64,000 bases of DNA from Sinomonas humi (GTDB lineage Bacteria; Actinomycetota; Actinomycetes; Actinomycetales; Micrococcaceae), in NCBI RefSeq assembly GCF_000802235.1, contig NZ_JTDL01000145.1, forward strand, positions 1-64,000, in the 5' to 3' direction. This document shows positions 44,109 to 64,000 of the stretch, one piece after another. Under the pieces are notes generated by a model. The model was not told the DNA's origin and searched no databases. It worked only from the letters and a program-made list of their open reading frames with translations. Position numbers and translations under genes: made by a program. Every line of letters begins with the position of its first letter. Within the stretch, counting starts at the first letter, position 1.

Positions 44109-44160
44109 ATGCCTACGTCACCTTCCCCTCCCGGATCACTGCTACCGATATTCGGCCCCG

Positions 44161-45474: not shown

Positions 45475-45554
45475 CGTTCCTCCATTCCCGGCGTCGCCGG
45501 TGGTCGTCGTTGAGTGCATGGAGCTGTCATGAGGAGTGGAGCTTGGCAAAGAAA

Positions 45555-45658
45555 TTTGCGCAAACTTGTCGTTAGAGCCGTTCAACTTGCCGATCTTGAC
45601 AGAGCAAATATTGCGGAAACAAGGGAACCGACCAACGAAACTTTTTCGAAATCGAAAC
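45555..45658. promoter_or_regulatory. candidate LacI-family operators between divergent genes
   Basis: A perfect TTTGCGCAAA palindrome with central CG (45555-45564) lies ~80 bp upstream of the binding-protein gene. A second site, CGAAACTTTTTCGAAATCGAAAC (45636-45658; written here in outline, with repeated TTTCGAAA-like arms), lies ~20 bp upstream of the regulator gene. Both have the form expected for LacI/GalR regulators, suggesting autoregulation plus control of the binding-protein gene. Confidence 0.5.
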
Positions 45659-45675
45659 TAGGGTATCCTCACCTC

Positions 45676-48082: not shown

Positions 48083-48451
48083 TCAGAAATTGGATTGAAT
48101 AAAGAGGATGCTGGGCGCGGCCACTCCGATGGCTCCGAGGATCCAGACCAGCCATGGGGCGGGAGAGCGGCGGGCGAGGGATCGTATGATCAGGAACCAT
48201 ACGAGAAGCAGGACGAGGGGTGGGACAAATCCCAAGAGCGCGAGGGAAGTGGCCCCCTGCACCCCTTCCCAGTCTCTTCTGAAGGTTGTGTCGAGCTTGG
48301 CGAGCCCGAGGTGGACCAGCACCAACTGTGTGAAGACTAGGGTGGCCATTCCAGTGGGCACTATCTCGAGCACGCCGATCGCGACGGAGGCGCCTGCAGA
48401 AGCGAGCGCAGTCCAGAACGTCCGTGCGGCGTGGGAGCGTTCGTGCGACAT
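48083..48451 (-). CDS. hypothetical membrane protein
   Basis: The 122-residue protein starts at the ATG at 48451. Four hydrophobic helices are predicted by eye (ALASAGASVAIGVLEIV, TLVFTQLVLVHLGLA, LALLGFVPPLVLLLVWFLI, WLVWILGAIGVAAPSILF). No conserved family was recognised. It begins directly after the decayed hydrolase remnant at 48453-48795. Confidence 0.6.
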   Translation of the reverse strand: MSHERSHAARTFWTALASAGASVAIGVLEIVPTGMATLVFTQLVLVHLGLAKLDTTFRRDWEGVQGATSLALLGFVPPLVLLLVWFLIIRSLARRSPAPWLVWILGAIGVAAPSILFIQSNF

Positions 48452-48452
48452 C

Positions 48453-48795
48453 TCAGCGTTCCCGCAGCATACGGTGGTATTTCTCGAAGACCCGATAGAC
48501 GCCAAGAAGCTCGTAGCCGTACTCTATGGCTGCGTTGCCGATGCCGTTGTACCGCTCGAGCGTGCGGCGGGTGACATCATCGTTGGCGTCCAATCCCGGT
48601 CGGCCGAGCCCCTGCCATTTTTGCAGTATGCAGAAGGACTCGTGGCACGGTCTCGACATTCTTGTCATCCTGATTGTGCAGAAGCTGCTAACCCCAGCGA
48701 CCAGGTGGTACGGCCGTTCTCCTCAACCTTGGTATCGCGCTGGCGTTGTAGGAATTGATCCACCGCTGCGCGCGCAGCACCATCTCGTCGGTCAT
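48453..48795 (-). pseudogene. remnant of a peptidoglycan-binding/DUF1906 glycoside hydrolase-like gene
   Basis: From an ATG at 48795 the frame reads TDEMVLRAQRWINSYNASAIP, the start of a known exported peptidoglycan-binding, glycoside hydrolase-like family (recalled pattern: (T/S)DEMVL..Q.W.N.TY......VEENGRTGW). The matching next part, KVEENGRTTW, is in another frame, so there is a frameshift near 48735, followed by a stop at 48665. A further piece (48453-48668, LDANDDVTRRTLER ... AAIEYGYELLGVYR) resembles the start of the DUF1906 domain. Most of the gene is gone. The assignment rests on remembered family patterns. Confidence 0.5.
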
Positions 48796-49548
48796 GGTTT
48801 TCCCTGTTGCCTCTTGCCTTGGTTGAGTTGCAAACGTAACTGTGGAGGGTGGACACGGAGGCGCCGCAGGCTCGGGAGGATCCGTGCGCGGGGTCTCGCT
48901 CAACCCGTGATGAGGAAAATCTAAGTGGCGCGGCGTGGACTCGGTGTCGACTTGGAGGAACTCGACCTGCACTGGCCCGAACGTCGAAGGAGGGCACACA
49001 GGCGGACTCGTAGGCGCAGACCTGTGGCTCAAGCAATGGATGCCCCTGATCCTCAACTCCCGGCCTAGCGGAAGGGGCAGATGCTCGTCGTTGTCACCTG
49101 TTCGAGATGTGGAGGGTGGAAAGCCTCGGAATCCGAGGAGGATTGTCTATGAGAGTCGTGGTCCTGCCGCGGGCGATCTTAAGTGGTCGTCGGCCCTCCT
49201 CCGGGCGGAATTCAGCTGTGCGCGATCCGCGACGTGACGCATCCCTTCACTGGGCCGGGCGGCTGGACGAAAGCAGTTCGAGGCGGCGCTCGCCGCGGCC
49301 GAGTAGCGCGCCTCGACGCCCATCGCGCTTCGTCGCACGACGGATTTGAGTCACCCCCAGCCTCCCTTTGACAGGATCACGGCCTCTGCCACTTTTGCCC
49401 CGCCATTTGAGCTTCGGTGCGGTTCAAGTTGCGGAGCCGGAGGAAGGCGACGACGGTGGACCCCAAGATCAGGGTGCCGGACCCACTGTCGGGCCAATCT
49501 CGCCAGCACCAAGACCAGCAACTGGCCGGAATGAGGCCGCCATGGATG
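48796..49548. other. gene-poor segment
   Basis: About 750 bp without a supported gene. Frames are short and lack ribosome-binding sites. A small palindrome, CCTCGGAATCCGAGG (~49125-49139), is present. The minus-strand frame ending at 49377 has one hydrophobic stretch (GTLILGSTVVAFLRLRNLN), possibly a fragment of a membrane protein gene. Confidence 0.5.
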
Positions 49549-50136
49549 CTAGCGGTGATCGAAATCGGTGGGCTCTTTCTGCGTAGGAAGCGCAGGGTCC
49601 GGCGAGTTTCTTGGCGAGATCTGCCGCTTGATCTGATCAAGCTCTTCTTTGAGCTCCTCAACGGTCGCACTGTACCTTGCAAAGTCTGCGCTTCTCCGCT
49701 TGGCAGCGGCGAAATTAATAATAGCTGCGAGAACGGCAATCGGGAAAGCGAGCAGCAAGGCCCAGCCCGAGGCCGCAAGGAAATCCATCGCCGTGGGAAG
49801 AGCTTGTTTGAAGGCCAAGAACTCGTTCACCCCGCCGACCAGATTGTTAAGAGCGGAGTCTAGGGGCTTCAGGTATTGACCTATGAGAGGCGTCCCGGAA
49901 AACGATGGGGCGCTCAGCGGCGGCTCGCTCCCTGATGTCCAGCGTGAGTCAGCGAAATGGTTCAGAACATAGACCCCGGCCCCCGCATTCAGGGCTGCGA
50001 AGAGCAGGACGGCGCCAAGCGCGGCCCAATGAAATTGGCGCGGGCGCCAAAGCCCGGCCGCCAGCGCGAAGGCGGCGGGAACTATCCAAGTGAAGATGTG
50101 GAGTTGATCGCGGCTGATTCCAGCTAGCAGATCCAA
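49549..50136 (-). CDS. hypothetical membrane protein with C-terminal coiled coil
   Basis: The 195-residue frame begins with a TTG at 50136 preceded by a GGGGCGGGA stretch. Predicted helices: FTWIVPAAFALAAGLW, WAALGAVLLFAALNAGAGVYVL and WALLLAFPIAVLAAIINFAAA; the C-terminus (ATVEELKEELDQIKRQI) is a likely coiled coil. No family recognised. Its neighbour at 50229-51560 is transcribed in the same direction. Confidence 0.6.
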   Translation of the reverse strand: MDLLAGISRDQLHIFTWIVPAAFALAAGLWRPRQFHWAALGAVLLFAALNAGAGVYVLNHFADSRWTSGSEPPLSAPSFSGTPLIGQYLKPLDSALNNLVGGVNEFLAFKQALPTAMDFLAASGWALLLAFPIAVLAAIINFAAAKRRSADFARYSATVEELKEELDQIKRQISPRNSPDPALPTQKEPTDFDHR

Positions 50137-50228
50137 AGGAGTTCCCGCCCCTTCCTATTGGAGTGAATGAGGTTCGGGTATCGAGGACATTGTCAGAGCG
50201 CGACTACGAACTGCTAGGAAATGCTCTG

Positions 50229-51560
50229 TCAAACGGTCTTGGGGTCGCCGTGCTGTAGCTCGGCGGCGTCGTCGATATCGCTCGCTGCCGGCTCTCCGTT
50301 CTTGCCGCGCTTCTTCGACTTGAAGAGGCCCACAACACTTCCGCCAACCGCGTCTGCCGCACCTGCGATGGCACCGCCGACCCCCTTGACCTTCGTGAGG
50401 GCCTGCGGTTCATCGGGGACTCCGTCACCGTCGATGTCGACCCTCCGGAAGGGGCGCGTCACAGTATCGGCTGCGCTCGTGACACCTGTGCCGACTGCGA
50501 GGGCGCCCGTGGCGACGCCGCCGCTGACAGTGCTTGCGGTATCGGCGATCCAGTTTCCAGTGGCCTTCGCCGCATCCTCCAAGGCAGCAAGAGCCGGGTT
50601 CAGCTCAGCCTCGGTATCGTCGGCTCCTGGCTTTTCCTTCAGTGGAACGGCCAGATGCGGAGGGAACACTTCTGGGGCATCGGCAAACGCAGCCCGGGCG
50701 GACTCGATGACCTCTCGGCCGAACACGAACCGGGCGACTCCTCCGGCCAGAGCTCCGACCCCATATTCAATCGCGGTCTGTTGCTTCCCGCTTAGGTTCT
50801 CGCGCACCGTGTCCAACTGTCCTGTCTGGATGGTTCGCACAAGACTCTGCGCCGCCCCTCCGGGGAGCGTGTCTGCAAGTGTATTCGCCCAATGTGACCA
50901 GTCCGCGCGACCGGTCACAATGCTCTGGCCAACGCCGACTGCGCCTGCTGAAGACACGCTCGCGAGGTCCGTAGCCATAGTCGCGATCTGCTGCTGGCTG
51001 ACGCGTTCGTTCGTTAGTCCATAGACCAGAGCGTGGGCCTGGTCCTGATCGAGGTCCATTCCATGAATATCGGCAATGGCTAGTCCGAAGATCGCGGTGA
51101 TCTCGAACTGCAGTTGCTGGTCACCCGCAGGCAGGAGCCCAGCGATGCGCTGGGCACCAGTCTTGGCCGCTCCCAACGCCACTCCCTTGGCCGCAACCTT
51201 CACGGCCTTCTTTGCAGCTTCCTTGCCAGCCTTCTTCGCAGCTTGACGGCCTGCGCTCTTCACACCCGCCGCCGCTGCACCGACACCCGGGATCATTCCG
51301 ATCGCGACATCAGCCGCGATCACACTGGCGCTGATGACGGCACCTGCGGCGCTGATGGCGGCACCATAATGGCGCTCCAGTATCTTGATGACCTCGGCTG
51401 GCGTAGCGTCGGGGTGCCCGCGCCGAACCCGCATGACGTATTTGCGAGCGACCGAGCGACGACCGCTGACGGCGTGCGCGATGTCCCGCGCTGCCTCCTC
51501 ATCCACGAGCTCGGCCTCAAGGGTGATGCCTTCAACGTCGCTAATCATTTCTTCAGGCAC
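50229..51560 (-). CDS. EcsC-like hypothetical protein
   Basis: The protein is 443 residues from a GTG at 51560 (GGGGGGAT upstream; an ATG at 51548 is also possible). Residues ~70-140 are Ala/Gly/Lys-rich with hydrophobic patches (AISAAGAVISASVIAADVAIGMIPGVGAAAAGV). A block around 150-200 (FEITAIFGLAIADIHGMDLDQDQAHALVYGL) resembles EcsC-family proteins. The C-terminus has a dockerin/thrombospondin-3-like DIDGDGVPDEP loop that could bind calcium. Its function is unknown. It lies next to the lantibiotic genes on the same strand as lanM, but the 250-bp gap argues against a shared operon. Confidence 0.65.
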   Translation of the reverse strand: MPEEMISDVEGITLEAELVDEEAARDIAHAVSGRRSVARKYVMRVRRGHPDATPAEVIKILERHYGAAISAAGAVISASVIAADVAIGMIPGVGAAAAGVKSAGRQAAKKAGKEAAKKAVKVAAKGVALGAAKTGAQRIAGLLPAGDQQLQFEITAIFGLAIADIHGMDLDQDQAHALVYGLTNERVSQQQIATMATDLASVSSAGAVGVGQSIVTGRADWSHWANTLADTLPGGAAQSLVRTIQTGQLDTVRENLSGKQQTAIEYGVGALAGGVARFVFGREVIESARAAFADAPEVFPPHLAVPLKEKPGADDTEAELNPALAALEDAAKATGNWIADTASTVSGGVATGALAVGTGVTSAADTVTRPFRRVDIDGDGVPDEPQALTKVKGVGGAIAGAADAVGGSVVGLFKSKKRGKNGEPAASDIDDAAELQHGDPKTV

Positions 51561-51809
51561 GACGGCGTGATCCCCCCATGTGCTTAGGTGCGTCCCATCT
51601 GTTTGGACCCCTCGGATGGCTGATAGAGCCCGGCGCTCCCCAGCGTCGGGTCAGGGATTTCCAGCCAAATATGCAGATCCAATGCATTTTTATCACAGGG
51701 CGTGGCGGCGTGGTGGGCGAATCGGCGAACATGACCCCACGCAGCTTCCGTTCTTATAGATCGGCGACTTGTCGCCACCGGAGATCGTGGACGACTTTGG
51801 ATGGGAGGG

Positions 51810-54800
51810 CTATGTCTTCGGGGGAGTCGCATGAGGCCGCGGGGCCAATTTAAGTGGCGGGACTGGGGAAATCAGTGGTTGCTTCGAGTGGGCATCCGTG
51901 TCTAGAGCCGCGCCGCTGACCACCGTCTTGGTATGCCCCTCCAGAAGGAGGACGTTCGGGATGCCGGGGTTCAGGGCATGGCATAGGCCATACAGTGAGC
52001 CGGCTGTCCCGAGCATGAGACCTCGGACGGTGGTGATTCCCTGCGGGAGCCCGCTGCGTGGCTGCGATCTTTGAATACGGCTGATCACCCGGTTCCGGAA
52101 ATCGTCCAGGCAGATGTTGGATCCCGCATATTCTGCAACTGGTTGTGAGGCCATCAGATTGCCGAGGCTGCCGTGGCACAGGGAGTCGTCCGATGGAAGC
52201 TCATCTCGGCTCGCCTCCCGGGCGCCGATGACGGCCAGGCCTAAGAGTTCAGGTGCTCCGAGAAGCGGGGCTGCGGAGGCGCGAGCCATTGCGATACCCG
52301 CCGCGCCATGGCACCAATGGGCAGGGAACATCTCGCCCACCATGAGCGACTCGGGTCGCGCGTCAAGCCATCTTTGCTTGGACGGACGGAACATCGCGTC
52401 GTCGAATCGGAGGGCCTCCATAGCGGCGGATGCGATCCTGTCGTCGTCGAGGGCGGAGGCCGCCCGGGCTAAGGCCCAACCGATGCCGGTCGCCCCGTGG
52501 GAGAACCCTCCTAGCTGAGCTTTGGCCGCCCCGGTCCGCCATACACGACTGTCGTCGTCGAGGAGCACGCTGCGGCTGATCAGGTGGGCAGTGACGGCCT
52601 GGAGGGCACTGCGGCCTTGGGGAGTGTGGGCCTCGGGCATCGAAGCGATGACGGCGCATGCGCCAGCAGCCCCGGCCATGACGTCGAAGTAGGTGTCCTG
52701 ATCGACGGCTTGTTCCACGCGGGTGATCGCTTTGAGGCGGAGCTCTTGGTAGCGGTTGCCGCTCAGGATCCCGTCATAGTGCGAGAGCGCGTAGAGGAGT
52801 CCTGCGGCGCCGCTGTACGCGCCGATGGGAAGCGTTAGCCGCTCCTTGGTCCAGTCGTCGAGGATCGAAGCAATGGCGTGAGCCGTCCGATGCGCGAGGT
52901 CGTCGAGGCCGAGATTTGGAAGGAGCCCGTGCGCGTGTGTCGCTGCAAAACTGATTCCCGCGAGTCCGTCATAGAGCGTCGGGCCAATCGGTCGGTACTC
53001 AAGTCCGCTGCTGTCATTGCCGCTGCAGACGCTTATCCATGTCGCGTCGTGGTCGCCGAGGATCGCGGACTCGAGTAGAACCCTGGCCTGCTCGCGGGCC
53101 AGGGCGGTGATCGCGGATCCTATCTTCTCTGGTGCAATATGAGCCTGACTATCCTCCCGTCTCATCTCAGATTCGCCGGCTCGTGGTGCGGCGGCGAGGA
53201 TCGACTCGTCAATGAGGCGCAGCGACTCGCGCATTCGCTCTGGGTCAAGGGAGTTCAGCCGCTCGGCGGCATCTTGGAGCGTGGTCTTCTCGAAGTAGTC
53301 CGGGATCACTTCGCGTCCGCTGGCGAACAGGCCGCGCTGATCCATGCGGGCGGTGAAGAGCGGGACGTCAAGTTGCCACAGGGATTCTTCCTCTGCGCTG
53401 ACCAGAGAACTCTCGCCAGGGTGCTCGTCGATGTGTGCCCAGAGGCTGCGCAGAAGGTGGTCGCGATCGATGCCGCTGCGGAGCCGGCTCGGCTGCCGCA
53501 TCTCAACCAGTAACAGCGAATATGAACGTGTAGCGCGGATGATGTGCCGCAACTCCATCTCAGGCACGGACGCCAGAATCGACTGGATCTGGGGTATGGA
53601 CGCCATCACTGAAAGGTGGGCCTGCCTGTAGCCCTCGCCGATTTCTGCGCGTTGCTCGCGCACGAGGTCGAGGGTCATTCCACCAGGTTGGTTCTTGGCG
53701 CGACCGACCGGCATCTCGACAGCAGCGATACGCATGCCGTCGGTGAAAGGGAAGACGACCTGGTGGACAGTCGCATACTGGGTGGTGCGCTGTAGCCCGC
53801 CCGTGGCCACGCTCACGTCGATGCTGGTGGCCTCTCCGGCTGTGAGCTGGACAGGGAGAATTCCTGCTCCAAGCACCGATGCATTCAAATGTTCGATCGC
53901 CCTCCGGGTTGCGACCACGTCGGCGCCAGCTCGGCTTCTGTTTTGGATCAGTGTCTCCATGTCGATCGGCACTGGCCCCGCGGCTGAAGCGATGACGTTC
54001 TCGAGGTGCAGGTCGGATGCTCCGAGGATATGGGCGATGGCAAGGAACGAACCCAGCCGACGCAGATACGTCTTCGGGTCTAGCTTCCCTGCGGCATCGT
54101 GGTCGATGAACTCCACCCAGCCGTATCCGTCGCGAGCCAGCGAGGACGGAGCATAAAGTCGAGCGAGCGAGGGGAGCGCTTCGTTAAGGACATCGACGAG
54201 CCGACGGTAAACGGTGAAGGGGCTGCAGTCGCGCGGCTTATAAACCAGTCGGTGGTGGTGCGCGAATCGGAGGACGGCCACGGACTGACCTGCATCGTGG
54301 CTATCGCCCGAGCCGAGCTCCACGGCCTGCAGAGAGGCGGCGCCGTGCGGTAGGAGACCATTGTCAGCCAATTCCTCCTCGTCGTCGATGAGCCGGTCGA
54401 GAACTCGCCCAACGTTCGTCCGCCAGTTTTTCAGATAGACGGTCAGGTCGCGGGCCAAGACGGGGTACTTCGTGTAGAAGCCGATGCGCTTGAGCGGCTC
54501 TGATAGGGCCGCATTGAGTCGGTCATACGAACCGGGGGACGACTCGTGCGCGAGCTCGGAGAGAATGCATCGCAGTGACATCGACGCAAGCCGCCCGGCC
54601 AACCCGTCGAGGAGGCTGGCGCGCGCGCTGTCGCTCAGCCAAGGCCAACCGTCGAGGTGTTTACCTTGGTTGCTGACCACATCGGCCAGCAAGCCAGGGA
54701 AAGGAAGTCCGCTTAGAAGGGTTCCTTCGACGACGAGTCCTCCGTTTCCGGGCGTGTACCCGCGGGCGGTGGGCCTCGGAGGCAGGAGCCAATGTTGGAC

Positions 54801-55049
54801 GTCTACGATCCAGCCCAACGCTCCGTGCTGTGGAGTCCAAGGCACGCCTGCGAGGAGAGCTCCTAGGTCTTTTGCCCCCATTGAATGCTCATCCAAATAA
54901 CGGCCGAACACTTCTGCCTGGAGCAAGGCCCGGTTCCTCCATGCATCTACCGCCGAGGGATCATGAGCAGAACCGAGATCGCCGTCGGGAACACGTTCCT
55001 GGAGAGAAGCTGCCTGGGCCAATGAGACGATCTCGTTCTGTGAGAACAT
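51810..55049 (-). CDS. lanM: class II lanthipeptide synthetase LanM
   Basis: The 1079-residue bifunctional enzyme starts at the ATG at 55049 after AAGGAGGG. The N-terminal dehydratase domain (DUF4135) has HHHRLVYKPRDCS with the ATP-binding Lys, and a kinase-like active site DLHLEN (~residue 341) and PIDMETL (~356). It phosphorylates and eliminates Ser/Thr of the precursor. The C-terminal LanC-like cyclase has GLAGISF, the active-site SHGATG (~849) and the zinc ligands in WCHGAAG (Cys ~912) and LCHGSLG (Cys-His ~957), which guide Cys addition to make (methyl)lanthionine. All expected motifs are intact. It lies downstream of the precursor gene, separated by a hairpin. Confidence 0.97.
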   Translation of the reverse strand: MFSQNEIVSLAQAASLQERVPDGDLGSAHDPSAVDAWRNRALLQAEVFGRYLDEHSMGAKDLGALLAGVPWTPQHGALGWIVDVQHWLLPPRPTARGYTPGNGGLVVEGTLLSGLPFPGLLADVVSNQGKHLDGWPWLSDSARASLLDGLAGRLASMSLRCILSELAHESSPGSYDRLNAALSEPLKRIGFYTKYPVLARDLTVYLKNWRTNVGRVLDRLIDDEEELADNGLLPHGAASLQAVELGSGDSHDAGQSVAVLRFAHHHRLVYKPRDCSPFTVYRRLVDVLNEALPSLARLYAPSSLARDGYGWVEFIDHDAAGKLDPKTYLRRLGSFLAIAHILGASDLHLENVIASAAGPVPIDMETLIQNRSRAGADVVATRRAIEHLNASVLGAGILPVQLTAGEATSIDVSVATGGLQRTTQYATVHQVVFPFTDGMRIAAVEMPVGRAKNQPGGMTLDLVREQRAEIGEGYRQAHLSVMASIPQIQSILASVPEMELRHIIRATRSYSLLLVEMRQPSRLRSGIDRDHLLRSLWAHIDEHPGESSLVSAEEESLWQLDVPLFTARMDQRGLFASGREVIPDYFEKTTLQDAAERLNSLDPERMRESLRLIDESILAAAPRAGESEMRREDSQAHIAPEKIGSAITALAREQARVLLESAILGDHDATWISVCSGNDSSGLEYRPIGPTLYDGLAGISFAATHAHGLLPNLGLDDLAHRTAHAIASILDDWTKERLTLPIGAYSGAAGLLYALSHYDGILSGNRYQELRLKAITRVEQAVDQDTYFDVMAGAAGACAVIASMPEAHTPQGRSALQAVTAHLISRSVLLDDDSRVWRTGAAKAQLGGFSHGATGIGWALARAASALDDDRIASAAMEALRFDDAMFRPSKQRWLDARPESLMVGEMFPAHWCHGAAGIAMARASAAPLLGAPELLGLAVIGAREASRDELPSDDSLCHGSLGNLMASQPVAEYAGSNICLDDFRNRVISRIQRSQPRSGLPQGITTVRGLMLGTAGSLYGLCHALNPGIPNVLLLEGHTKTVVSGAALDTDAHSKQPLISPVPPLKLAPRPHATPPKT

Positions 55050-55075
55050 CGGGGACCAGCCCTCCTTCTAGACAC

Positions 55076-55115
55076 CGGCGGACGGCTCAGGCATCGAAAC
55101 CTGAACCGTCCGCCG
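55076..55115 (-). terminator. attenuator hairpin between lanA and lanM
   Basis: A 16-bp stem (left arm 55076-55091, 8-nt loop, right arm 55100-55115) whose single plus-strand mismatch becomes a G-U pair in the lanA transcript. It sits 6 bp past the lanA stop and ends 26 bp before lanM. There is no U tract, so partial termination is likely, giving more precursor than enzyme. Confidence 0.75.
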
Positions 55116-55121
55116 AGGGTG

Positions 55122-55331
55122 CTATCGGCACGCACAAATGAACGTGCCGCACTCGATGGTGAGCGTACAGATCCAGCCGCTGCTGGCCATGTATGGGCTC
55201 GCGATCCGTTCGAACTCCGAGTCGATCTGCGCCTGTAGCGACGGAGTGCTGCCGTCAGTGGCGCGGGCATCGGTGTCCCATTGCGGGCTGACGATTGCCC
55301 CGAGTTCCTGCTGTTCAAGGATGTTGGCCAT
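55122..55331 (-). CDS. lanA: lantibiotic precursor peptide, actagardine/michiganin type
   Basis: The 69-residue peptide starts at the ATG at 55331, with a near-perfect AAAGGAGGAAA site upstream. The leader (~1-49: [17 protein letters not shown] ... [10 protein letters not shown]) is acidic and amphipathic, as LanM leaders are. The C-terminal core [20 protein letters not shown] (50-69) matches actagardine ([19 protein letters not shown]) at 17 of 19 positions, with Ile for Val and Phe for Val plus an extra Arg. Michiganin A shares the final Arg. Its three Thr and four Cys can form the four-ring type B (mersacidin-like) scaffold that binds lipid II. Cleavage after Ala49 is inferred. Confidence 0.96.
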
Positions 55332-55666
55332 GTTCTTTCCTCCTTTCTGAGAATCGTGGGCGGTCGCGCATCGTGTGGGGGCCCGGGAGAAGATTCGTCT
55401 CGGCGACGATTCGTGAGTGTTGGGGAAGTAACGCCGGTGAAAGTCCGCTTCTATCTGCTCGTTTTCCTCGATATGAGATCCTCGAGACGCTCTCAGCCTA
55501 GGAACGCGAGACGGCGCCCACATCATGCTTGATAGGGATCTTTGACGTGACCCTCCCCCCTTGATCGCGGCCTCCTCCACCACTCGTATTGCCACCTTGG
55601 GAGGAGGGCACTGAGCTGAAGCCTGTAGTTGCACGGAGCGGGATCCTCCGCCACTACGCTGAACCC
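55332..55666. promoter_or_regulatory. divergent promoter region of the lantibiotic locus
   Basis: 335 bp between lanA (-) and the kinase gene (+). CGAGACG occurs at 55484-55490 and 55507-55513, direct repeats 23 bp apart, a spacing (two helical turns) often used by NarL-type response regulators. A TACGCT hexamer (55654-55659) ends 7 nt before the kinase ATG and could be the -10 of a leaderless mRNA. These are candidates only. Confidence 0.4.
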
Positions 55667-56803
55667 ATGTCACAGCCTGGGGGGACACGGCGACGCACTG
55701 ATTCACGCGTCGCCGCCTGCAGCGTCCTCGCCTGTGCCGGGATGGGCTTGGTGGGCCAGCCCGATTGGATGTGGTCCGCTGCGATGGCGGCGTGCCTCAT
55801 TCTGCGAAGATCCGCTCCTGGGGGGTTCGCGGTCCTTGTCACAGTGATTTCAGGCGCTCACTTCGTTGCTGATGCAGCGCTGCTAATGCCCGGCGACCTC
55901 GTCCTTCTGACGGCTGTCTACTCGGTTGCTGCGTATGCCTCGGAACCACTGCGCAACTTGGGCCTGTTTCTCGGCGGAGCCTTCGTGGCACTGCTCGCGT
56001 GCAGGGCTCTTGTCGGCGACAGCGCCCGCGACCTTCGCTCAATTGTGCTACCGGTGGCTCTTGTCTTGGTCAGCATCATCGCCGCGTGGGCCCTCGGCCA
56101 TCTCGAACGGCGCAAGGCAGGCGCCTTTCGCGACCTTGAACAGCGGCAGATACTCGCCGAGCGCCATGCGGAGGCCAACGCCCGGCTTGCTGCCTACGAG
56201 GAGCGAGAACGTATTAGCGACGATATGCACGACGTCCTTGCCCACACGCTGACTGCCATAGTCGTGCAGGCCGAAAGCGGCGGCACTGTCGCCCAGAACC
56301 GGGAGACTACTGAGCTGTTCGCTAGCATCTCCACGACCAGCCGGGCGGCACTCCGAGAAGTCCGAAGCTTGCTCTCTCCCGACGCTGGGCCCAAAACCCG
56401 CCCGACCCCTGGCATCGAGGATCTCGAGGACCTCATCGAGGGCTTCGCCCTAACTGGACTGAAAATCGATCTGACTCAGACAGGGAAGGCTTCCTCTCTC
56501 ACTCCTGGAATGGGCGTCGCCGTCTATCGGGTCGTTCAAGAGTCGCTGACGAACGCGCTGCGGCATGGAGCCGAGAGAACGGTACGCCTGGCGATGGTCT
56601 GGTCGATGGATGAACTTTCGGTCTCTAGCGCGAATCCCCTCGACGAGCCCGCGCGGCACCGTCCTGTGCAGGAGCATCGCGGCCTTGCAAGCATCCGCCG
56701 TCGTTGCGAGCTCTACGGAGGACGGGTGCTGATAGAAGCAGGCTACGACTTCACTGTGAATGCAGCGTGGCCGTTGAGGCCGAAGAGCAGCCGGACGGCA
56801 TGA
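55667..56803 (+). CDS. sensor histidine kinase (NarL/DesK-type) of the lantibiotic locus
   Basis: The 378-residue protein starts at the ATG at 55667. Four to five hydrophobic helices (residues ~15-145) form a membrane sensor with little extracellular sequence. The HisKA_3 dimer/phospho-acceptor motif [17 protein letters not shown] has His188. The HATPase domain keeps the N-box ([13 protein letters not shown]), but the G-boxes are short, as usual in this family. It is divergent from lanA and coupled by ATGA to its response regulator. It likely senses the lantibiotic or cell-wall stress. A related pair (GarR/GarK type) accompanies the actagardine genes. Confidence 0.92.
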
Positions 56804-57513
56804 TCAATCTGCCCCATCAGATCACCGTCCTCGTGGTGGACGATCAGTCTCTCGTCCGCGATGGGTTCACTCGGATCGTCAACTCGCAGCCGGACATGAC
56901 CACGGTCGGAGTCGCCGCGGACGGCAAGGAGGCGATCGCACGGGCGCGTGAGCTGCATCCCGACGTCGTACTCATGGACATTCGCATGCCTGTGCTCGAT
57001 GGGATCGAAGCAACACGGACCATCGTCTCAGAAGGGGCCAGCCGGGGCACCCGCGTACTCGGATTGACCACCTACGACGCCGACGCCTACGCCATCCGCA
57101 TTGTCAAGGCCGGAGCGATCGGATTCATCCTGAAGGACAGCACAGCCGCCCAGCTGGTTGGCGCCATCCGCTCCGCACATTGCGGCACGTTCACCGCTGC
57201 AGTCAGCACCAGCCGTCGGCTAATCGCCAGACTTACTGAGCGCCCAGCCGCATCGGCGTCGAATCCTTCCGCCTTGAGCGGCCTGACGAAACGAGAGATG
57301 GCGGTTTTCGATCACCTTGTCTCAGGAGCATCCAACCTGGAGATCGCCCGCGAGTTCGGAGTCGCCGAGGTAACCATCAAGACTCACGTTGGACACATCC
57401 TGTCCAAGCTAGGTGCCCGGGACCGTGTCCAACTGGTGGTCTGGGCCCACCGGCAAGGACTGGCAGACAGGGGTCCCGACGGTGAGGTTGATGGGAGAAC
57501 TCCAGACGTATGA
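56800..57513 (+). CDS. LuxR/NarL-type response regulator of the lantibiotic locus
   Basis: The 237-residue protein starts at the ATG at 56800, overlapping the kinase stop. The receiver domain (VLVVDDQSLVRDG, phospho-acceptor Asp60 in VVLMDIRMPVLDG, conserved Lys in FILKDS) is followed by a LuxR helix-turn-helix (LTKREMAVFDHLVSGASNLEIAREFGVAEVTIKTHVGHILSKL; location cue). It should activate lanA and/or the ABC immunity genes when phosphorylated. A 127-bp gap separates it from the ABC genes. Confidence 0.94.
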   Translation: MINLPHQITVLVVDDQSLVRDGFTRIVNSQPDMTTVGVAADGKEAIARARELHPDVVLMDIRMPVLDGIEATRTIVSEGASRGTRVLGLTTYDADAYAIRIVKAGAIGFILKDSTAAQLVGAIRSAHCGTFTAAVSTSRRLIARLTERPAASASNPSALSGLTKREMAVFDHLVSGASNLEIAREFGVAEVTIKTHVGHILSKLGARDRVQLVVWAHRQGLADRGPDGEVDGRTPDV

Positions 57514-57640
57514 CGAGCGCGGGCCGCTACGCTGCCTCCTGCGAAGGTAGGAGCTGAAGTTCAGTCCTGAGCGCGATTCGCGCTTTGCGTCACGTGGGCA
57601 TTATGAGAAGCATGTTGCCGCCGTGCGAAACGAGACTTCG

Positions 57641-58540
57641 ATGAACAATGTCATCGCGACAATGGATCTGACGAAACGCTTCAAAGAGCACACCGTTGTC
57701 GATGGGCTGGACCTGCTCGTGCCGCAAGGAACGGTCTATGGCTTCCTCGGCCCAAATGGATCAGGGAAGTCGACGACCATGAAGATGCTCCTCGGCCTCA
57801 CACGGCCGACAAAGGGCGAGATCGAGCTGTTCGGACGGCCTCTCACGCCTGTCTCGCGAGCGGAGATCCTGCCCTCCATCGGGTCGATGATAGAGGAGCC
57901 ACCTGGCTATGGGCATCTCACCGGCGCAGAGAACATGCGCATCGTCGGGGACATGCTGGGCCTAGTCGACAGACAGATCGAACGGGCGCTGGCCACGGTC
58001 CGTCTGACCGAGCATAAGGACAAGCTCGTCCGGAACTACTCCCTAGGGATGAAGCAGCGTCTCGGCATTGCAATGGCCCTTGCCCGCGACCCCTCCCTGC
58101 TCGTGCTCGACGAGCCAACGAACGGCCTAGACCCTGCCGGTATCGAAGAGATCCGCACCCTGCTGATCGAGCTGGCAGGGCAGGGCATTACGGTGATGGT
58201 CTCCAGCCATCTGCTCGACGAGATCGACAAGATGGCCAGCGTCCTGGGCATCCTCGCGAACGGCAGGATGATCTTCCAGGGCACTCGAGAACGGCTGTTC
58301 AATCAATCGATTCCAGACCTGATCATCGAGACGTCCGCGCCCGATGTCGCGCTCGGACACGTGGAGGGTGCAACAGTAGTGCCCGAGGGGATCCGGCTCA
58401 GCGGCATTGAGAGAGACGCCGCCGCCCATTTAGTCAAGCGGCTTGCGACAGCAGATGTGCCCATTTACGGAGTCCGCCGCGCCCAGCAGAGCTTGGAAGA
58501 CGTGTTCATGGACCTCACCGGACGAGGAGGTCTGCTGTGA
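57641..58540 (+). CDS. ABC transporter ATPase, LanF/BcrA-like (lantibiotic immunity)
   Basis: The ATG at 57641 gives 299 residues (MNNVIATMDLTKRF); an in-frame GTG at 57623 would add six. It has Walker A GPNGSGKST (~37-45), Q-loop region EEPPGYGHLTGAENM, signature YSLGMKQRLGIAMAL, Walker B LLVLDEPTNGLDP and VSSHLLDEIDK. The modified Q-loop carries Glu (IEEPPGY) where most ABC proteins have Gln. That E-loop is a hallmark of lantibiotic immunity and BcrA-type ATPases. With the two permeases it should expel the lantibiotic from the membrane to protect the producer. Confidence 0.93.
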   Translation: MNNVIATMDLTKRFKEHTVVDGLDLLVPQGTVYGFLGPNGSGKSTTMKMLLGLTRPTKGEIELFGRPLTPVSRAEILPSIGSMIEEPPGYGHLTGAENMRIVGDMLGLVDRQIERALATVRLTEHKDKLVRNYSLGMKQRLGIAMALARDPSLLVLDEPTNGLDPAGIEEIRTLLIELAGQGITVMVSSHLLDEIDKMASVLGILANGRMIFQGTRERLFNQSIPDLIIETSAPDVALGHVEGATVVPEGIRLSGIERDAAAHLVKRLATADVPIYGVRRAQQSLEDVFMDLTGRGGLL

Positions 58541-59289
58541 CGCGCGGGGTGCTTCTGGAATTCCGGAAGATGCACAGGCTTCGCACGCTCCCCCTCCTGA
58601 TCGTGCTCGTCGTGGCGGTGGCTGCCCTCAGCTCGGCCTCGCTGTTCTCCCGTGGAGCGCATGCGACACTGAATGACTCTTCAGCCCGCCCCTGGGCCGC
58701 GCTGCTGCTCAGTTACACCATGATCGCGGCGATGACTTCTCCGATCCTCACTGCAGTCCTGGCCAGCAGGCAGACCGATATCGAGCATTCCGGTGCAGGC
58801 TGGACGCTCTCTGCTACGGCGGGACATTCGCCTAGTCGGCTCTGCTGGGCAAAACTCGCAGCACTCGCTTTGCTTCTCCTGCCCGCAACCGGTGTGCAGT
58901 CGCTGCTCGTTCTGGGCGCCGGCACGCTCGCAGGAATCACCGTCCGCGTCGACCCAGCTCCATGGGCTCTATACACCGCGCTGCTTTATCTGGTCAATGT
59001 TGCCTTCTGCGCGCTGTACATCTGGTTGGCGGCGCGCGTCGAGAACCAACTGATTAGCGTCGGCGTCGGCATGCTCGGCGCGTTCCTGGCTGTGTTCGCA
59101 TTGCTCATACCGTCTGAGCTCAGCAGGCTCATCCCTTGGGGCTATTACGCGGTGATCTCGCATGCAGGCCAGAACGGTGGAGAGGTCACCTACGTGAGTC
59201 CTCCTTACGGCTGGATCCTTGGATTCTTCGTCCTTGTCGGGTCGGCCTTCACCTTGGCCACTCGCCACCTCGACCGCGCCGAGAGGTAA
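58537..59289 (+). CDS. ABC permease, LanE/LanG-like
   Basis: The 250-residue protein starts at a GTG at 58537 overlapping the ATPase stop (GTGA). It has six hydrophobic helices (e.g. TLPLLIVLVVAVAALSSASLF, AALALLLLPATGVQSLLVLGAG, LIPWGYYAVIS) in the compact ABC-2 immunity-permease topology, and begins with a basic amphipathic segment (LLEFRKMHRL). The LanEG subunits act as a heterodimer with LanF. Confidence 0.88.
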   Translation: MTRGVLLEFRKMHRLRTLPLLIVLVVAVAALSSASLFSRGAHATLNDSSARPWAALLLSYTMIAAMTSPILTAVLASRQTDIEHSGAGWTLSATAGHSPSRLCWAKLAALALLLLPATGVQSLLVLGAGTLAGITVRVDPAPWALYTALLYLVNVAFCALYIWLAARVENQLISVGVGMLGAFLAVFALLIPSELSRLIPWGYYAVISHAGQNGGEVTYVSPPYGWILGFFVLVGSAFTLATRHLDRAER

Positions 59290-59294
59290 CTCAC

Positions 59295-60041
59295 GTGTTC
59301 CGAGCAGAATTCACTAAGCTCAAGCGCTCCAGCACTTGGATCATCGCCGTCGTCCTTCCATTGCTCGCCGTGGTGACGGGAACCATCAACCTTGCCAACA
59401 ACACGGAAACCCTCGATGCGGGCTGGTCCTCGTTCACATCTCAAGTCGTCCTGTTCTACGGCCTGCTTTTTTACTCGATGGGCATAAGCCTGCTAGCGGC
59501 TGCCGTCTGGAGGATCGAACATCGCGGCACGAACTGGAATCTTCTGCTCACCAGCACTGAAAAGTCGATTCGGCTCGTGCTTGCCAAACTTGCCGCGATC
59601 CTCGTGCCTGTTGCTCTTATGCAGGTGGTACTCATCGTCGGAACGGCCGTCTCCGGGCTGTTCATGCTCCGGCTCGACGGCGGCTTCCCTTGGCAGTTCG
59701 CGCTGGTTAGCCTCATCGCGATCGTGGCTGCACTTCCTCTTATAGCGGTGCAGTCTCTGCTGTCCCTGCTGGCGAAGTCCTTCGCGGCGCCGGTCGCGCT
59801 TTGCCTGCTTGGCTGCGTCATCGGCGTCGCCTCAGTCACCTCCAGCGCACTCCGCCCGCTCGGCTACGTGCTTCCGCAGGCGATCAACACACGCGCGCTT
59901 AATCTCGGTTCCACCGCAATCGCCGAGTCTGGGAGACTAACCGTCGTCGATATCATTCCGATGATGTCGACCAGCCTCGGCATAGCCGCCGCGATTGTAG
60001 TTTTGACAGTTGGCGCGATCCGGGCGATCAAACTTCGCTGA
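59295..60041 (+). CDS. ABC permease, LanG/LanE-like
   Basis: The 248-residue protein starts at a GTG at 59295, 5 bp after the previous stop, with GAGAGG upstream. The N-terminus FRAEFTKLKRSSTWIIAVVLPLLAVVTG and six helices match the partner permease and the LanG/SpaG/MutG group. It completes an F-E-G set. The following 60042-60286 spacer shows no gene. Confidence 0.88.
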   Translation: MFRAEFTKLKRSSTWIIAVVLPLLAVVTGTINLANNTETLDAGWSSFTSQVVLFYGLLFYSMGISLLAAAVWRIEHRGTNWNLLLTSTEKSIRLVLAKLAAILVPVALMQVVLIVGTAVSGLFMLRLDGGFPWQFALVSLIAIVAALPLIAVQSLLSLLAKSFAAPVALCLLGCVIGVASVTSSALRPLGYVLPQAINTRALNLGSTAIAESGRLTVVDIIPMMSTSLGIAAAIVVLTVGAIRAIKLR

Positions 60042-60286
60042 CGCCGAGGCTCGGCGGCGTTCGAGAGCCCGCAGGCGCCGGTCTGATCGCTTCGATCACC
60101 GATAAAAGGTGCAGCCGGACGAGCTATAGGCCAGAGTGCGGTCCCGCCAGTCGGCTCCACCTTTGGCCGCTCAGCTGACGCGATTGTCGTTGTCACAAGC
60201 TGCACTCCGAGACATCTCGCCCCTGTTCGTCCACAATTTCAGGCTGAGAGTGGAAGGAGATGATCTGCCTTGTTGAGCCTCCGCCC

Positions 60287-60652
60287 TCATCTCGGCGGGG
60301 AGCCTGAGTAGAACCGGCCAAACTTGTTCAAGAACAAGAACATGACGGCAAACCCCACGACGCTCAACAGAGGGCCAGCCCAGTACATCGCGTCCGAACC
60401 GCGCAGCAGGATCGCGATCGCGCCGCCCGTCATAGCGAGAGCACCTACGCCTGGCGCCGCCGTTGCGAAGGTGCTCTGTATTTTCCAGTGGATTTGCCCG
60501 TAATAGGCGGCTTGAAGAACAAGGAAGAGGATGGCCCCTGGCACGAACACCAAAGGCCATAAGCCCGGTGTCAGGGCGAGAACACTTAGCGATACTCCAT
60601 AAACCAGGGAGATACCTAACCAATATGCTCGCGGTGACTTTCTCGGCTCCAC
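60287..60652 (-). CDS. small four-helix membrane protein
   Basis: The 121-residue protein starts at a GTG at 60652 with AAGGAAC upstream. Helices: WLGISLVYGVSLSVLAL, LWPLVFVPGAILFLVLQAAYY, GVGALAMTGGAIAILL and YWAGPLLSVVGFAVMFLFL. Its place beside the lantibiotic immunity genes makes an immunity or unrelated membrane role possible, but no family is recognised. It faces the ABC operon tail to tail. Confidence 0.6.
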   Translation of the reverse strand: MEPRKSPRAYWLGISLVYGVSLSVLALTPGLWPLVFVPGAILFLVLQAAYYGQIHWKIQSTFATAAPGVGALAMTGGAIAILLRGSDAMYWAGPLLSVVGFAVMFLFLNKFGRFYSGSPPR

Positions 60653-60673
60653 GTCAGTCTCGTTCCTTCTTGA

Positions 60674-60778
60674 TTAGCAGCTCATATTAAAGTCGATCAC
60701 CATCCCGCCCAGTGCAAGTGCGAGAAAGCAGCCCACCGCAGTCCAAGGGCCGAAGAACTCCCAGACTTCACACTCCAC
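60674..60778 (-). CDS. possible 34-residue membrane peptide
   Basis: A GTG at 60778 opens a short frame with ECEVWEFFGPWTAVGCFLAL and a second part ending DFNMSC, a single hydrophobic helix with several Cys, stopping 22 bp before the next start (60652). A GGGAG lies 13 bp upstream of the GTG, which is far. It could be a small membrane protein co-transcribed with the 60287-60652 gene or the tail of a decayed gene. Confidence 0.3.
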   Translation of the reverse strand: MECEVWEFFGPWTAVGCFLALALGGMVIDFNMSC

Positions 60779-61039
60779 GCTACTGTTGGCATATCACTCC
60801 CAGAGGCGGCCCACGTAGACGGGGACTGCGGTAGCCCGTGAGCATTCTCATCCACTTTGCGAACCCGACAGGATCGAGGGGTCCTTGCCTTGTCCAGTCT
60901 CGATATGGCTACTGCTCGTTGTTCAGGAGTGGGCTCAGCAATTGTCGCGCCAGAGGCAAGGTCTTGGCTCTTCGCCGAGGCTGCCGTAGCAGGAGTTAGC
61001 GACACTGCAAGAAGCGCTAACGCTGACAGTGAGCGACGA

Positions 61040-61170
61040 CAAGGTAGGCCATTCCGACCGGGGCAGGGCCTCGGCGACGGCGACGGGCAGGTCACCGATC
61101 GTGGCGGGATGGTCCACGACCATCAGCGCGGGCCGTGGACGGTGAGGCCTTCGAGGATTGCCCTGAGCTT
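61040..61170 (-). pseudogene. IS110-family transposase remnant
   Basis: Three pieces in three frames line up with the remembered IS110 (DEDD transposase) pattern: KLRAILEGLTVHGPR, then VVDHPATIGDLPVAVAEA (typical VVDQPATIGALPVAVA), then GMAYL (typical VAYLPGL). At least two frameshifts and loss of both ends leave ~130 bp of debris. It marks past insertion near the lantibiotic locus. Confidence 0.5.
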
Positions 61171-61252
61171 TGCCCGTCGTGGGGCAGGGCCCGGTCCAGA
61201 AAGCGGGGACTCGCTCTTCTAGCTCGGTTCGTGGTGCGGGTGAATCATTTCG

Positions 61253-61603
61253 CTATTTTGTCGGCCGCCACGTCGGCGGTATTGGTAGCGGTTCCTTTGG
61301 GCCGATCCCTACCGTCCACGCTATTCCAAATTGGTCACGCCGAATCTGGTTAGTTAGGTTGCCAAGCGGCTCTAAGAGACCGAGGGCCCAAGCTTCGCCA
61401 GTAGACCTGGGTTCTCCCTCAACGGCGTACGGAGGAAAGGCTACTCGGTACCCGGTAGGCCCAAAAACGCCGTTGGTGTGTTCAAACACGACGCACGCGC
61501 TGGAGGGCGAGTCGGCCCACACTTCGTGGACCAACACGTCATGACCCTCCCAGGTCGCGAGTGTTCGCAGTAGGGCTTTGATGACTGTCGATGCTTCGTC
61601 CAT
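61253..61603 (-). CDS. hypothetical small cytosolic protein
   Basis: The ATG at 61603 gives 116 residues (MDEASTVIKALLRTLATWEGHDVL) with segments SSACVVFEHTNGVFGPTGYRVAFPPY and QIRRDQFGIAWTVGIGP. The mixed hydrophobic/polar pattern looks like a folded alpha/beta protein. Its size and position, near mobile debris with no partner, resemble immunity-type proteins, but no family is recognised. Confidence 0.5.
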   Translation of the reverse strand: MDEASTVIKALLRTLATWEGHDVLVHEVWADSPSSACVVFEHTNGVFGPTGYRVAFPPYAVEGEPRSTGEAWALGLLEPLGNLTNQIRRDQFGIAWTVGIGPKEPLPIPPTWRPTK

Positions 61604-61671
61604 GGTCCTGGCTCCGCTGTTGTTCGTCCAAGAAAGGGGTGATGCTCGCATCTAAGGACCGGGGGATCAAA

Positions 61672-61908
61672 ATGAGGAAGCTCAGGAGTGTTGTCGCGGT
61701 GATGATTGCCGCACTGATGACCGTCATTTCGGCTGGGGCCACCACCGGAGGCCAACCACCGCCAGGCCGCGCAGGTCCTGGCGACGGCAAACCACGCCAT
61801 GCTCGGTCCAGTCCCCCTTCACACGGGTTTTGCACTCGGCAGCAGAGCGGGGATTCGGTTTCGACAAGCGTGGAACAAGCGGGCAACATTTGGCCGTGGA
61901 AGCCATGA
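61672..61908 (+). CDS. possible small exported protein
   Basis: An ATG at 61672 opens 78 residues with a clear signal peptide (MRKLRSVVAVMIAALMTVIS, cleavage near SAGA). The rest is Pro/Gly/Arg-rich and low in structure, so either the mature part has decayed or the protein is a short secreted peptide. It has only a weak GGGGG ribosome-binding site. Confidence 0.3.
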   Translation: MRKLRSVVAVMIAALMTVISAGATTGGQPPPGRAGPGDGKPRHARSSPPSHGFCTRQQSGDSVSTSVEQAGNIWPWKP

Positions 61909-62200
61909 GAAAGCTGATGGTGTCCCCGAACTGGTGGACGTAGGCCAACGGAAACTACGGTTGGGCCGTCGTACCCCGCAGGACCGCGATAAAGGCCCGG
62001 TTCGGCCGGGCATCCGGCAGCACCCTCTGCACCTCGGCGAGCGCCTCGAGCCCCGACAGTCCACGCACCTTCGCGCCGTACAGCCCCGCAACCCCGGCTT
62101 CGGGAGCCGCAGTTTTGTCGGCAGAAGGCTATATCTTGTCTCGCAGATGCTTCGTTTGAGGCGCTGGCCGAGAGCGGGCGTCGGATGGGGGGAAGACCCA
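61909..62200. other. fragment-like region, no intact gene
   Basis: On the minus strand, 61960-62105 can be read as VAGLYGAKVRGLSGLEALAEV...RPNRAFIAVLRGT, which looks like coding sequence but has no start and stops at both sides, so it is probably a gene fragment. The family was not recognised. Confidence 0.35.
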
Positions 62201-64000
62201 ATGTCGGGTGTTGTCGAATATGCAGATTGGAACCGCGCGATCGGTGAGGCGTTCTTCGGACCTCATGCAGAGGGCGAGCTCGTCTACCTTGATTCCGATG
62301 CTGATGCCTTCAGAGAAGCTTGCCGCCGAGTGGGCGTTGCCGAAGACGAGGCAGGCGATTCGCTGGGCTCAAGCGTCCGCTCCCTGCTGAATCTGAGGGG
62401 GTCGCACAGGGCAACCTTCGCCAACTTCGATCAGATGACTACCCAATGGGCCCGTCGTCGAAGGAAGGCTGTCCGCGAAGGCGAGAGGACTCCGTTGCCG
62501 CCCGTTATTGGGCTGCTCATGATCTTCTCGATGGCGGCGGAGCGAATGGGCGCTCGTGATCCCGGAACCGTTAAGACCGAGGCGGGCTATTACGCGCAAC
62601 TGGAGAGGCTCCTCCGGATCCCGGTACCGGATTCAACGAGAATCAGGGCCAGCTTTCGTGCCACTTCCGAGACGTATTGGGAAGCGCTCAGCCTGTGGTT
62701 GGAGGATCTGGACGGAGCCTATGGTCTACCGAGCGCTCATGCCCTGACTCACCGATACGTGGGTCTGCCGATTTCGCAGGCCCTGATTCGCGACACCGAG
62801 CGTCGCCACATGCATTCGATGTTTGTCGATCAGGGTTTCGTTGTGGGCGTCCCGGTCTCCCATGAGGAGATGCGCGACGCAATCGAGAACTGGATTCATT
62901 CCCCTTCGGCCGCCCCCAATGCCGCCTTCCGAAAGATGTGGGCGTCGGAGGAGACGCGGCCGAAGATTGCGGACGCTGCCATAGCTGAGCTGCTTGCATG
63001 GGATGGTGGCGGCATCATTGCGGGTCGGGGTCCGGACGCTAAAACTGGCGCTGCCCAAGGACGTTGCTTCCTCACAGTGAGGGAACGCCGCAAGGCTCTA
63101 AAACGAAGTTATGCGCTCGGCCTCGCGGTTAAGCAGGTGAGAGGTGTGGCTGGCGACGCCAGGATCAAGCTTGCGGGAAATGAGACTGCAACCGTTGATG
63201 TTTCCCCCTTCTCTTCGGGCCTGGCTGACTTGAGGACTCCGGCAGAGATAGCGCCCGATAGTCTGCTTGAAGGCGAAGTGATCATCGAGTGGGCAGACGG
63301 ATCTCGTGCTCAACGTTCTCCAAAGCGAGTCGTGGTCTTTGGCCAGGACGCGGCCACGGGCAGCTATATCGAGATTGACCGTATCGTTCCTTCACTGGGG
63401 AGCAGACTCCTCGTGAAGGACGAGGGGGACCTTGTAGCCGCAGCCGAGGCCATTCTCAAGGATGCTGCCGCTCCTGGATTCAAGCGAATCGATGGCCCGG
63501 GCTACGACTTGCCAGTTGGATGGGCCCTTTTCTCAGACGTTCAGTTGCTCCGAGCGCCTCGCAGCGACGAGATTCAGCGGCACCGGGATCTTTCTTGCCT
63601 TGAGCCGCGGATGAGTACGCAGCTTGCCATTCAAGGCGGTCTGAGGCTGCCGGGAAGGATTCCCAAGTGGGTGGCCGGGCGCGGGATGCACGTGGTGGTA
63701 ACGGCAGAGGGTGAGACGCCAGTAGATCTCGTCGCATCTCTACGAATCCTGAGACGCTTCAGGCCGAGGAGCGCTGGCTGGCGCGTGAAGTTGTTCCCCC
63801 TGCGTCCGTGCCTTTACTTGTGAGTGAGGAGGGCGAAGATATCGTCCTGTCGCTACGTCGGGGCAACAGCGTGCTTCAGGAACTTAAGGTTCGTGTCCGA
63901 TCATCTGATTCGCCCCGCGATGCGACCCTCCCCGATTTTGCTTCTCTTTGTCACGATGCTGAGGATCGTCTTTGGCCATTGACAGCTGTGCCGTTCGCAG
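62201..64000 (+). CDS. large uncharacterised protein, frameshifted and cut by window end
   Basis: The ATG at 62201 follows GGGGGGAAG. The first frame runs 540 residues to 63823. It is mixed helical with motifs SSVRSLLNLRGSHRATFANFDQM, HALTHRYVGLPISQALIRDTERR and, later, beta-rich parts (GEVIIEWADGSRAQRSPKRVVVFG). Around 63740 the coding signal moves to the -1 frame: from 63745 it reads NPETLQAEERWLAREVV ... SEEGEDIVLSLRRGNSVLQELKVRV and stays open to base 64000. One base appears to be missing at 63740-63741, so this is a pseudogene, a phase variant or a sequence error. No family is recognised. The size and style recall proteins of multi-gene defence systems, but this is not evidence of function. 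Confidence 0.6.

What the first reader, a model, noticed from the sequence alone, without database searches (positions are those of the whole stretch)
51810..60041. A lantibiotic locus making a new actagardine/michiganin variant
Precursor (55122-55331), LanM, kinase/regulator and LanFEG-like transporter sit together. The core [20 protein letters not shown] differs from actagardine at two positions (Val to Ile, Val to Phe) and carries the extra Arg of michiganin A. The ring-forming Thr and Cys are all kept, so a lipid II-binding type B lantibiotic is expected with a more hydrophobic ring region. The comparison is from remembered core sequences.
Basis: partly seen in the sequence, partly recalled or inferred. 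Interest (0 to 1): 0.92.

Follow-up and report, generated by a model that had tools for sequence, protein, structure and literature searches.

The report
Michiganin-type lantibiotic gene cluster, new variant
An actinobacterium carries a small gene cluster that very likely makes a close relative of the known antibacterial peptides michiganin A and actagardine; it is a new member of a known group rather than something new in kind.

Summary
Confirmed. On the minus strand, 55122-55331 encodes a 69-aa precursor ending [20 protein letters not shown] with the group's ring residues. Beside it lie a class II LanM and, divergent, a kinase, a regulator and a LanFEG-like transporter. Clavibacter, Microbacterium and Actinomyces gerencseriae loci share this seven-gene cassette, so it is michiganin-type; the luciferase-like monooxygenase seen in one Actinoplanes and one Salinispora cluster is absent from this contig. 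By homology to the michiganin leader the product is probably the 21-mer [21 protein letters not shown], 2161.96 Da after four dehydrations. No identical core was found, but a Propionicimonas core differs only in its last residue and Phe15 occurs in 4 of 11 cores. Extras: a strong lanA-lanM hairpin in 5 of 5 loci folded; no C39 peptidase found in the assembly; a ~34 kb low-GC region absent from the one congener inspected, shared with a Druantia-like operon; a near-constant core beside LanMs only about 30% identical. Product untested. New member of a known kind.

The parts
55122..55331 (-). lanA: 69-aa precursor peptide
   Evidence: translation; homologues at 10 genome-contig loci
55125..55187 (-). 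predicted 21-aa core [21 protein letters not shown]
   Evidence: leader end SPYM matches the michiganin A leader end RRVVSPYM listed in PMC3930743; position inferred by homology
55188..55331 (-). 48-aa leader peptide ending ERIASPYM
   Evidence: alignment A2
51810..55049 (-). lanM: class II lanthipeptide synthetase, 1079 aa
   Evidence: TIGR03897 E 1.4e-193; Pfam; LicM2 and CylM alignments; seven motif blocks shared with relatives (catalytic roles recalled)
55050..55124 (-). lanA stop codon and lanA-lanM gap with a hairpin: an uninterrupted 16-pair stem (two pairs G-U); possible mRNA-stabilising, processing or partly terminating element
   Evidence: MFE -45 kcal/mol, z -5.70; hairpins in the same gap of the 4 relatives folded out of 10; not listed as terminator-like by the scan, no T run
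55589..56803 (+). histidine kinase (HisKA_3 type; start may be the ATG at 55667)
   Evidence: 51-53% identical to kinases of L005, L006, L007
56800..57513 (+). NarL/LuxR-type response regulator; ORF listed from 56704, likely start ATG 56800 overlapping the kinase stop
   Evidence: homology begins at residues 35 and 40 of the long ORF in L007 and L006, but at residue 1 in L005, so the start is inferred
57623..58540 (+). LanF-like ABC ATPase (immunity)
   Evidence: TIGR03740 best NCBIfam hit, under cut-off; 75-79% identical in L005, L006, L007, L009
58537..59289 (+). LanE/G-like ABC-2 permease 1
   Evidence: PF12730; 64-72% identical in L005, L006, L007, L009
59286..60041 (+). LanE/G-like ABC-2 permease 2; ORF listed from 59136, likely start GTG 59286
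   Evidence: PF12730, TIGR03732 weak; homology begins at residues 50 and 54 in L007 and L009, at 39 in L006 and at 1 in L005, so the start is inferred
39344..64000 (.). part in the window of a ~34 kb low-GC variable region that holds the cassette (continues to about 73656 on the contig)

Best explanation
The locus is a complete michiganin-type class II lantibiotic cassette. LanM dehydrates Ser/Thr of the core and closes four thioether rings (Ser-Cys ring A, then three interlocked Thr-Cys rings); the leader is removed after SPYM to give a globular 21-mer with N-terminal Ala and C-terminal Arg that binds lipid II through the CTLTIEC ring and blocks cell-wall synthesis in Gram-positive competitors. 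The LanFEG-like transporter protects the producer, and the kinase/regulator pair, divergent from lanA, probably senses peptide or wall stress. A hairpin after lanA may keep precursor mRNA above lanM mRNA. Gene identity, synteny and residue conservation are shown; ring pattern, cleavage site, export route, regulation, hairpin role and activity are inferred.
For: Precursor; LanM family and motif blocks; seven-gene divergent cassette shared with L005, L006 and L007; ring residues and the Glu invariant in 11 of 11 precursor rows, 9 of them distinct; [quoted passage not shown] Ala substitution of the matching Glu in mersacidin and actagardine abolishes activity, per PMC3918158 (passages); bridge pattern of mersacidin conserved in actagardine and michiganin A per PMC2706954 (passages); michiganin leader end RRVVSPYM and measured mass 2145.0 (PMC3930743, passages), which fits the 21-mer that I recall for michiganin A minus four waters, 2145.56.
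Against: No expression data. No C39 peptidase domain was found in the assembly (control rings in 8 of 14 genomes), and Pfam shows no protease or ABC_membrane-type exporter among the seven cassette ORFs, so export and leader removal are unassigned. NCBIfam hits of the transporter genes are below cut-off or absent. [quoted passage not shown] The hairpin has no T run and is not scored as a terminator.
Confidence: 0.92

Rival explanations
1. It is an actagardine-type locus whose product carries a sulfoxide like actagardine.
For: Core differs from actagardine at only two positions plus Arg; six luciferase-like monooxygenase matches exist elsewhere in the genome.
Against: A luciferase-like monooxygenase lies in the clusters of L012 (next to lanM) and L013 (two genes on) (the other actagardine-type loci were not scanned), but none of the six PF00296 matches is on the contig of this locus, C52; LanM is 52-56% identical to L005, L006, L007 and 32-33% to L010, L012, L014, which form their own clade (100/100), the window's group with L008 having 96/96.
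Confidence: 0.05
2. The cassette is silent or decayed and makes no peptide.
For: LanM is in 1 of 15 genomes of the genus searched, its own, and the cassette lies inside a low-GC region absent from the congener inspected.
Against: All seven reading frames are open, the LanM motif blocks are kept, a ribosome site precedes lanA and a hairpin lies in the same gap as in four relatives.
Confidence: 0.08
3. The transporter and two-component genes belong to a separate peptide-sensing unit that merely neighbours lanAM.
For: They are divergent from lanAM, and A. gerencseriae L005 has a second, less similar transporter and kinase/regulator set.
Against: The same divergent arrangement is kept in Clavibacter, Microbacterium and Actinomyces loci.
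Confidence: 0.06

Closest known systems
Michiganin A (Clavibacter michiganensis)
   Same: Leader ending SPYM, C-terminal Arg (recalled), identical ring residues; the seven-gene divergent cassette is that of Clavibacter sp. VKM Ac-2872. The michiganin cluster itself was not fetched.
   Different: In 21-mer numbering Ser1 to Ala, Leu6 to Ile, Ile16 to Phe (michiganin residue 1 is recalled and fits its mass; residues 5/15 of the actagardine numbering from PMC10676316).
Actagardine / deoxyactagardine B (Actinoplanes)
   Same: Ser/Thr/Cys ring residues and CTLTIEC.
   Different: V5I, V15F, extra Arg against actagardine; leader alike in only a few columns; LanM of A. cyaneus 31.7% identical; no luciferase-like monooxygenase on this contig.
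Propionicimonas MAG locus L009 (uncharacterised)
   Same: 20-residue core identical except final Gln for Arg; LanFEG-like ATPase 79% identical.
   Different: LanM 30.2% and kinase 28% identical; its VYKP block reads VYRP.
Mersacidin
   Same: Class II, TxTxEC motif, type B (recalled).
   Different: Leader listed as ending in GA (PMC3930743 passage); ring B of nine residues against six in actagardine (PMC2706954 passage).

Membership tests
Class II lanthipeptide (LanM type) | Bifunctional LanM with DUF4135 and LanC domains | tested here: met
Class II lanthipeptide (LanM type) | Adjacent short precursor with Ser/Thr/Cys-rich C-terminus | tested here: met
Michiganin/actagardine group | Core residues S2, C6, T7, T9, E11, C12, T14, C17, C19 (ring assignment recalled) | tested here: met
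   invariant in 11 of 11 precursor rows, 9 distinct
Michiganin/actagardine group | Four thioether rings in the actagardine pattern | not testable with these tools
   needs MS/MS or NMR of the product; sources disagree on michiganin itself
Michiganin sub-group | Divergent lanAM / kinase-regulator-LanFEG cassette and SPYM leader end | tested here: met
Actagardine sub-group | Luciferase-like monooxygenase in the cluster (sulfoxide) | tested here: not met
   present in L012 and L013, the two such loci scanned; none of six genome matches on contig C52
Lantibiotics with LanT export | ABC exporter with C39 peptidase cleaving the leader | tested here: not met
   0 matches in the assembly; control rings in 8 of 14
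Lipid II-binding type B lantibiotic | Binding of lipid II | not testable with these tools
   only the TxTxEC motif is seen

The most novel reading that the evidence does not exclude
The group is mosaic: an almost fixed lipid II-binding core travels between clusters with very different LanM enzymes (about 30% identity) and is exported and trimmed without a C39 transporter (none found), by an unlinked protease that cuts after SPYM, with the LanFEG-like or the nearby MacB-like transporter (39487-43769) acting as exporter.
Probability: 0.3. Interest if true: 0.5.

Novelty: new member of a known kind. Interest (0 to 1): 0.3.

Why it matters
It adds a natural Ile5/Phe15/Arg20 member to a small group of lipid II-binding antibiotics, one semisynthetic derivative of which (NVB-302) completed phase I trials (PMC10676316, section read). 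Across natural cores residue 15 occurs as Val, Leu, Phe and even Arg, and as Ile in michiganin, while the ring scaffold is invariant; and the same scaffold sits beside LanMs of very different lineages. That is a natural guide for analogue work and for the open question of how leaders of this group are cut and exported.

Tried and rejected
Actagardine-type assignment rejected on monooxygenase, leader and LanM grounds. Plasmid origin: no match in 72,556 plasmid records for the precursor or, in near mode, for window 40001-64000. Viral contigs: 16 stretches matched a pattern, none encodes a relative. Border repeats or tRNA at the insertion: no shared 12-mer between the two border stretches compared, no tRNA in window, L004, L017 or L018. 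Organism name not established; the 16S search found none in the assembly. Promoter scan: one sigma-70-like site against a shuffle mean of 1.8. Terminator scan: 5 sites against a shuffle mean of 4.9, the lanA-lanM hairpin not among them. Literature: no held paper has the core strings searched or CTLTIECGT in its text, which says little because sequences are often only in figures and many primary papers are not held, the michiganin one among them. That V15F of actagardine is an improved engineered variant is recalled (Boakes 2012, seen only as a reference in PMC10676316) and not confirmed: none of the 14 papers listed has both 'actagardine' and 'V15F'.
Full report
The observation. Window 55122-55331, read on the minus strand, encodes [69 protein letters not shown]. 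Downstream of it on the same strand is a 1079-aa LanM (TIGR03897, 645 bits, cut-off 304; DUF4135 and LANC_like). It aligns with the solved LicM2 and CylM, and seven motif blocks picked from it are shared with the relatives (catalytic roles recalled; the Propionicimonas LanM departs most, VYRP for VYKP). Divergent from them lie a histidine kinase, a NarL/LuxR-type regulator, an ABC ATPase whose best NCBIfam hit is the lantibiotic-protection subunit TIGR03740 (below cut-off), and two ABC-2 permeases. One LanM match was found in the 4.4 Mb assembly, this one. The finding is confirmed.

What it is. A scan of genome contigs with a two-row precursor alignment gave 10 loci (29 stretches matched the two peptide patterns used, so cores that fit neither pattern could be missed). 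At 10 of 10 a LanM match follows the precursor. In three of them, Clavibacter sp. VKM Ac-2872 (L007), Microbacterium sp. AG238 (L006) and Actinomyces gerencseriae (L005), the whole divergent seven-gene cassette is kept with 51-78% protein identity. Outside the cassette, (output cut in the middle, the window's own rows shown) found matches of the window's ABC/FtsX pair at 41797-43769 to ABC and FtsX genes near the clusters of L008, L010 and L012 (34-40% identity; for L013 the ABC only), generic ABC-ATPase matches, and, of the contig right of the window, transport-permease ORFs matching L006 at 26-31%; apart from these it showed mostly frames overlapping the cassette. In a tree of 9 of the 11 LanMs (L011 left out because its match came in pieces, L013 because its match came in two pieces) the four LanMs of window, L005, L006 and L007 group (100/99), with MAG L008 next (96/96), and the Micromonospora/Actinoplanes/Salinispora LanMs form another clade (100/100); Propionicimonas is a long branch of unsure place, and the program flagged unlike letter make-up for it, Clavibacter and the window. 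L012 and L013 carry a luciferase-like monooxygenase in the cluster; here none of the six genome matches is on this contig. So this is the michiganin branch, and a sulfoxide is not expected.

The core. In 11 of 11 precursor rows (9 distinct) [13 protein letters not shown] (preceded by that C) and CAC are invariant; within the 20-residue core only residues 5, 15, 16 and the tail vary. Residue 5/15/tail: window I/F/R; A. gerencseriae F/F/R; Microbacterium L/L/R; Clavibacter L/F/R; MAG L008 V/R/R; Propionicimonas I/F/Q; Micromonospora V/V/R; two Actinoplanes V/L/none; two Salinispora V/V/Q. Phe15 is thus in 4 of 11 (4 of 9 distinct), and the window core differs from that of Propionicimonas only in the last residue. 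PMC10676316 (section 9 read) says michiganin A has 21 residues and differs from actagardine at residues 5 and 15, Leu and Ile for Val and Val; [quoted passage not shown] The latter lists the michiganin leader end as RRVVSPYM and the measured mass as 2145.0. The 21-mer that I recall for michiganin A minus four waters gives 2145.56. By that homology the window's mature peptide is [21 protein letters not shown], 2161.957 Da monoisotopic after four dehydrations.

How it probably works. [quoted passage not shown] Ala for the equivalent Glu abolishes activity of actagardine and mersacidin (PMC3918158, passages). Immunity by the LanFEG-like transporter and control by the two-component pair are inferred from family and synteny. 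Between lanA and lanM lies a gap with an uninterrupted 16-pair stem, two pairs being G-U (stretch of 75 nt with the lanA stop: -45 kcal/mol, z -5.70); hairpins in the same gap occur in the four relatives folded, L005-L008, z -3.05 to -3.91 (six other relatives not folded). There is no T run and the terminator scan does not list it, so a stabilising or processing role is at least as likely as partial termination; all of this is inferred.

What is missing. No C39 peptidase domain was found in the assembly (control rings in 8 of 14 genomes), and Pfam shows no protease or ABC_membrane-type exporter among the seven cassette ORFs. L008 and L013 do have an ABC_membrane exporter nearby. Of the flanks of L005, L006 and L007 only ten ORFs were scanned, none of them a C39 transporter or an evident leader protease. 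Export and trimming are therefore unexplained here.

Where it sits. LanM is in 1 of 15 genomes of the genus, its own. The precursor is in 2 of 98 genomes in the relatives search, its own and one that is evidently the MAG of L008, and in 1 of 396 genomes drawn across the phylum, its own. In the one congener inspected, chosen because its left-flank gene matches best (95%), a 1.8 kb left block (86% DNA identity; no match further left within the stretch fetched) and a right block (89% over 6.3 kb, then 81-85%) are in the same order, but 1.7 kb separates them against 34.3 kb here (window 39344 to about contig 73656). The region has GC 0.605 against 0.664 and 0.678 in the flanks. It also holds a MacB-like transporter unit and, right of the cassette, DruF-like genes of Druantia type II, a DEAD-box helicase and McrB/McrC-like genes. 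The cassette is thus an accessory, probably horizontally acquired element (inference).

Novelty. No identical precursor was found among 10 genome contigs relatives (the tool may leave out records of the window's own genome), 72,556 plasmids, or the 98 and 396 genomes other than its own, and the core strings are in no held paper text. NCBI nr, BAGEL and antiSMASH were not available. It is a new member of a known kind. The more curious side observation is that nearly one core is paired with LanMs as different as 30% identity while the immunity ATPase stays 79% identical (window and Propionicimonas).

Noticed in passing
window 61799-63823 and L004:31-9644 (contig about 64030-73643): Druantia type II-like defence genes: DruF homology is split over two reading frames, followed by a 1777-aa DEAD-box/MrfA-like helicase (Pfam only, not scanned with PADLOC), an McrB-like AAA protein and McrC.
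   Followed up: partly
window 39344 to contig about 73656: A ~34 kb low-GC variable region stands where the congener G009 has 1.7 kb, which holds a helicase-like C-terminal ORF by eye; no tRNA or border repeat seen.
   Followed up: partly
window 39487-43769: An ORF without Pfam hit, a peptidoglycan-binding-domain protein, an ABC ATPase and a MacB/FtsX-like permease in a row, a possible peptide exporter 8 kb from lanM; the ATPase and permease have 34-40% identical counterparts near the clusters of L008, L010 and L012.
   Followed up: partly
L009:1499-4129 and 10237-13353: The Propionicimonas MAG locus has a second LanM-like gene and pairs a core nearly identical to the window's with a very distant LanM.
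   Followed up: partly
L008:8251-8448: MAG precursor with Arg at core residue 15 and Arg in place of the N-terminal Ala, a natural charged variant.
   Followed up: no
L005:13539-19392: A. gerencseriae has a second LanFEG-like transporter and kinase/regulator set beyond its lanM.
   Followed up: no
window 46536-47561: Protein with a NERD nuclease-related domain inside the insertion.
   Followed up: no
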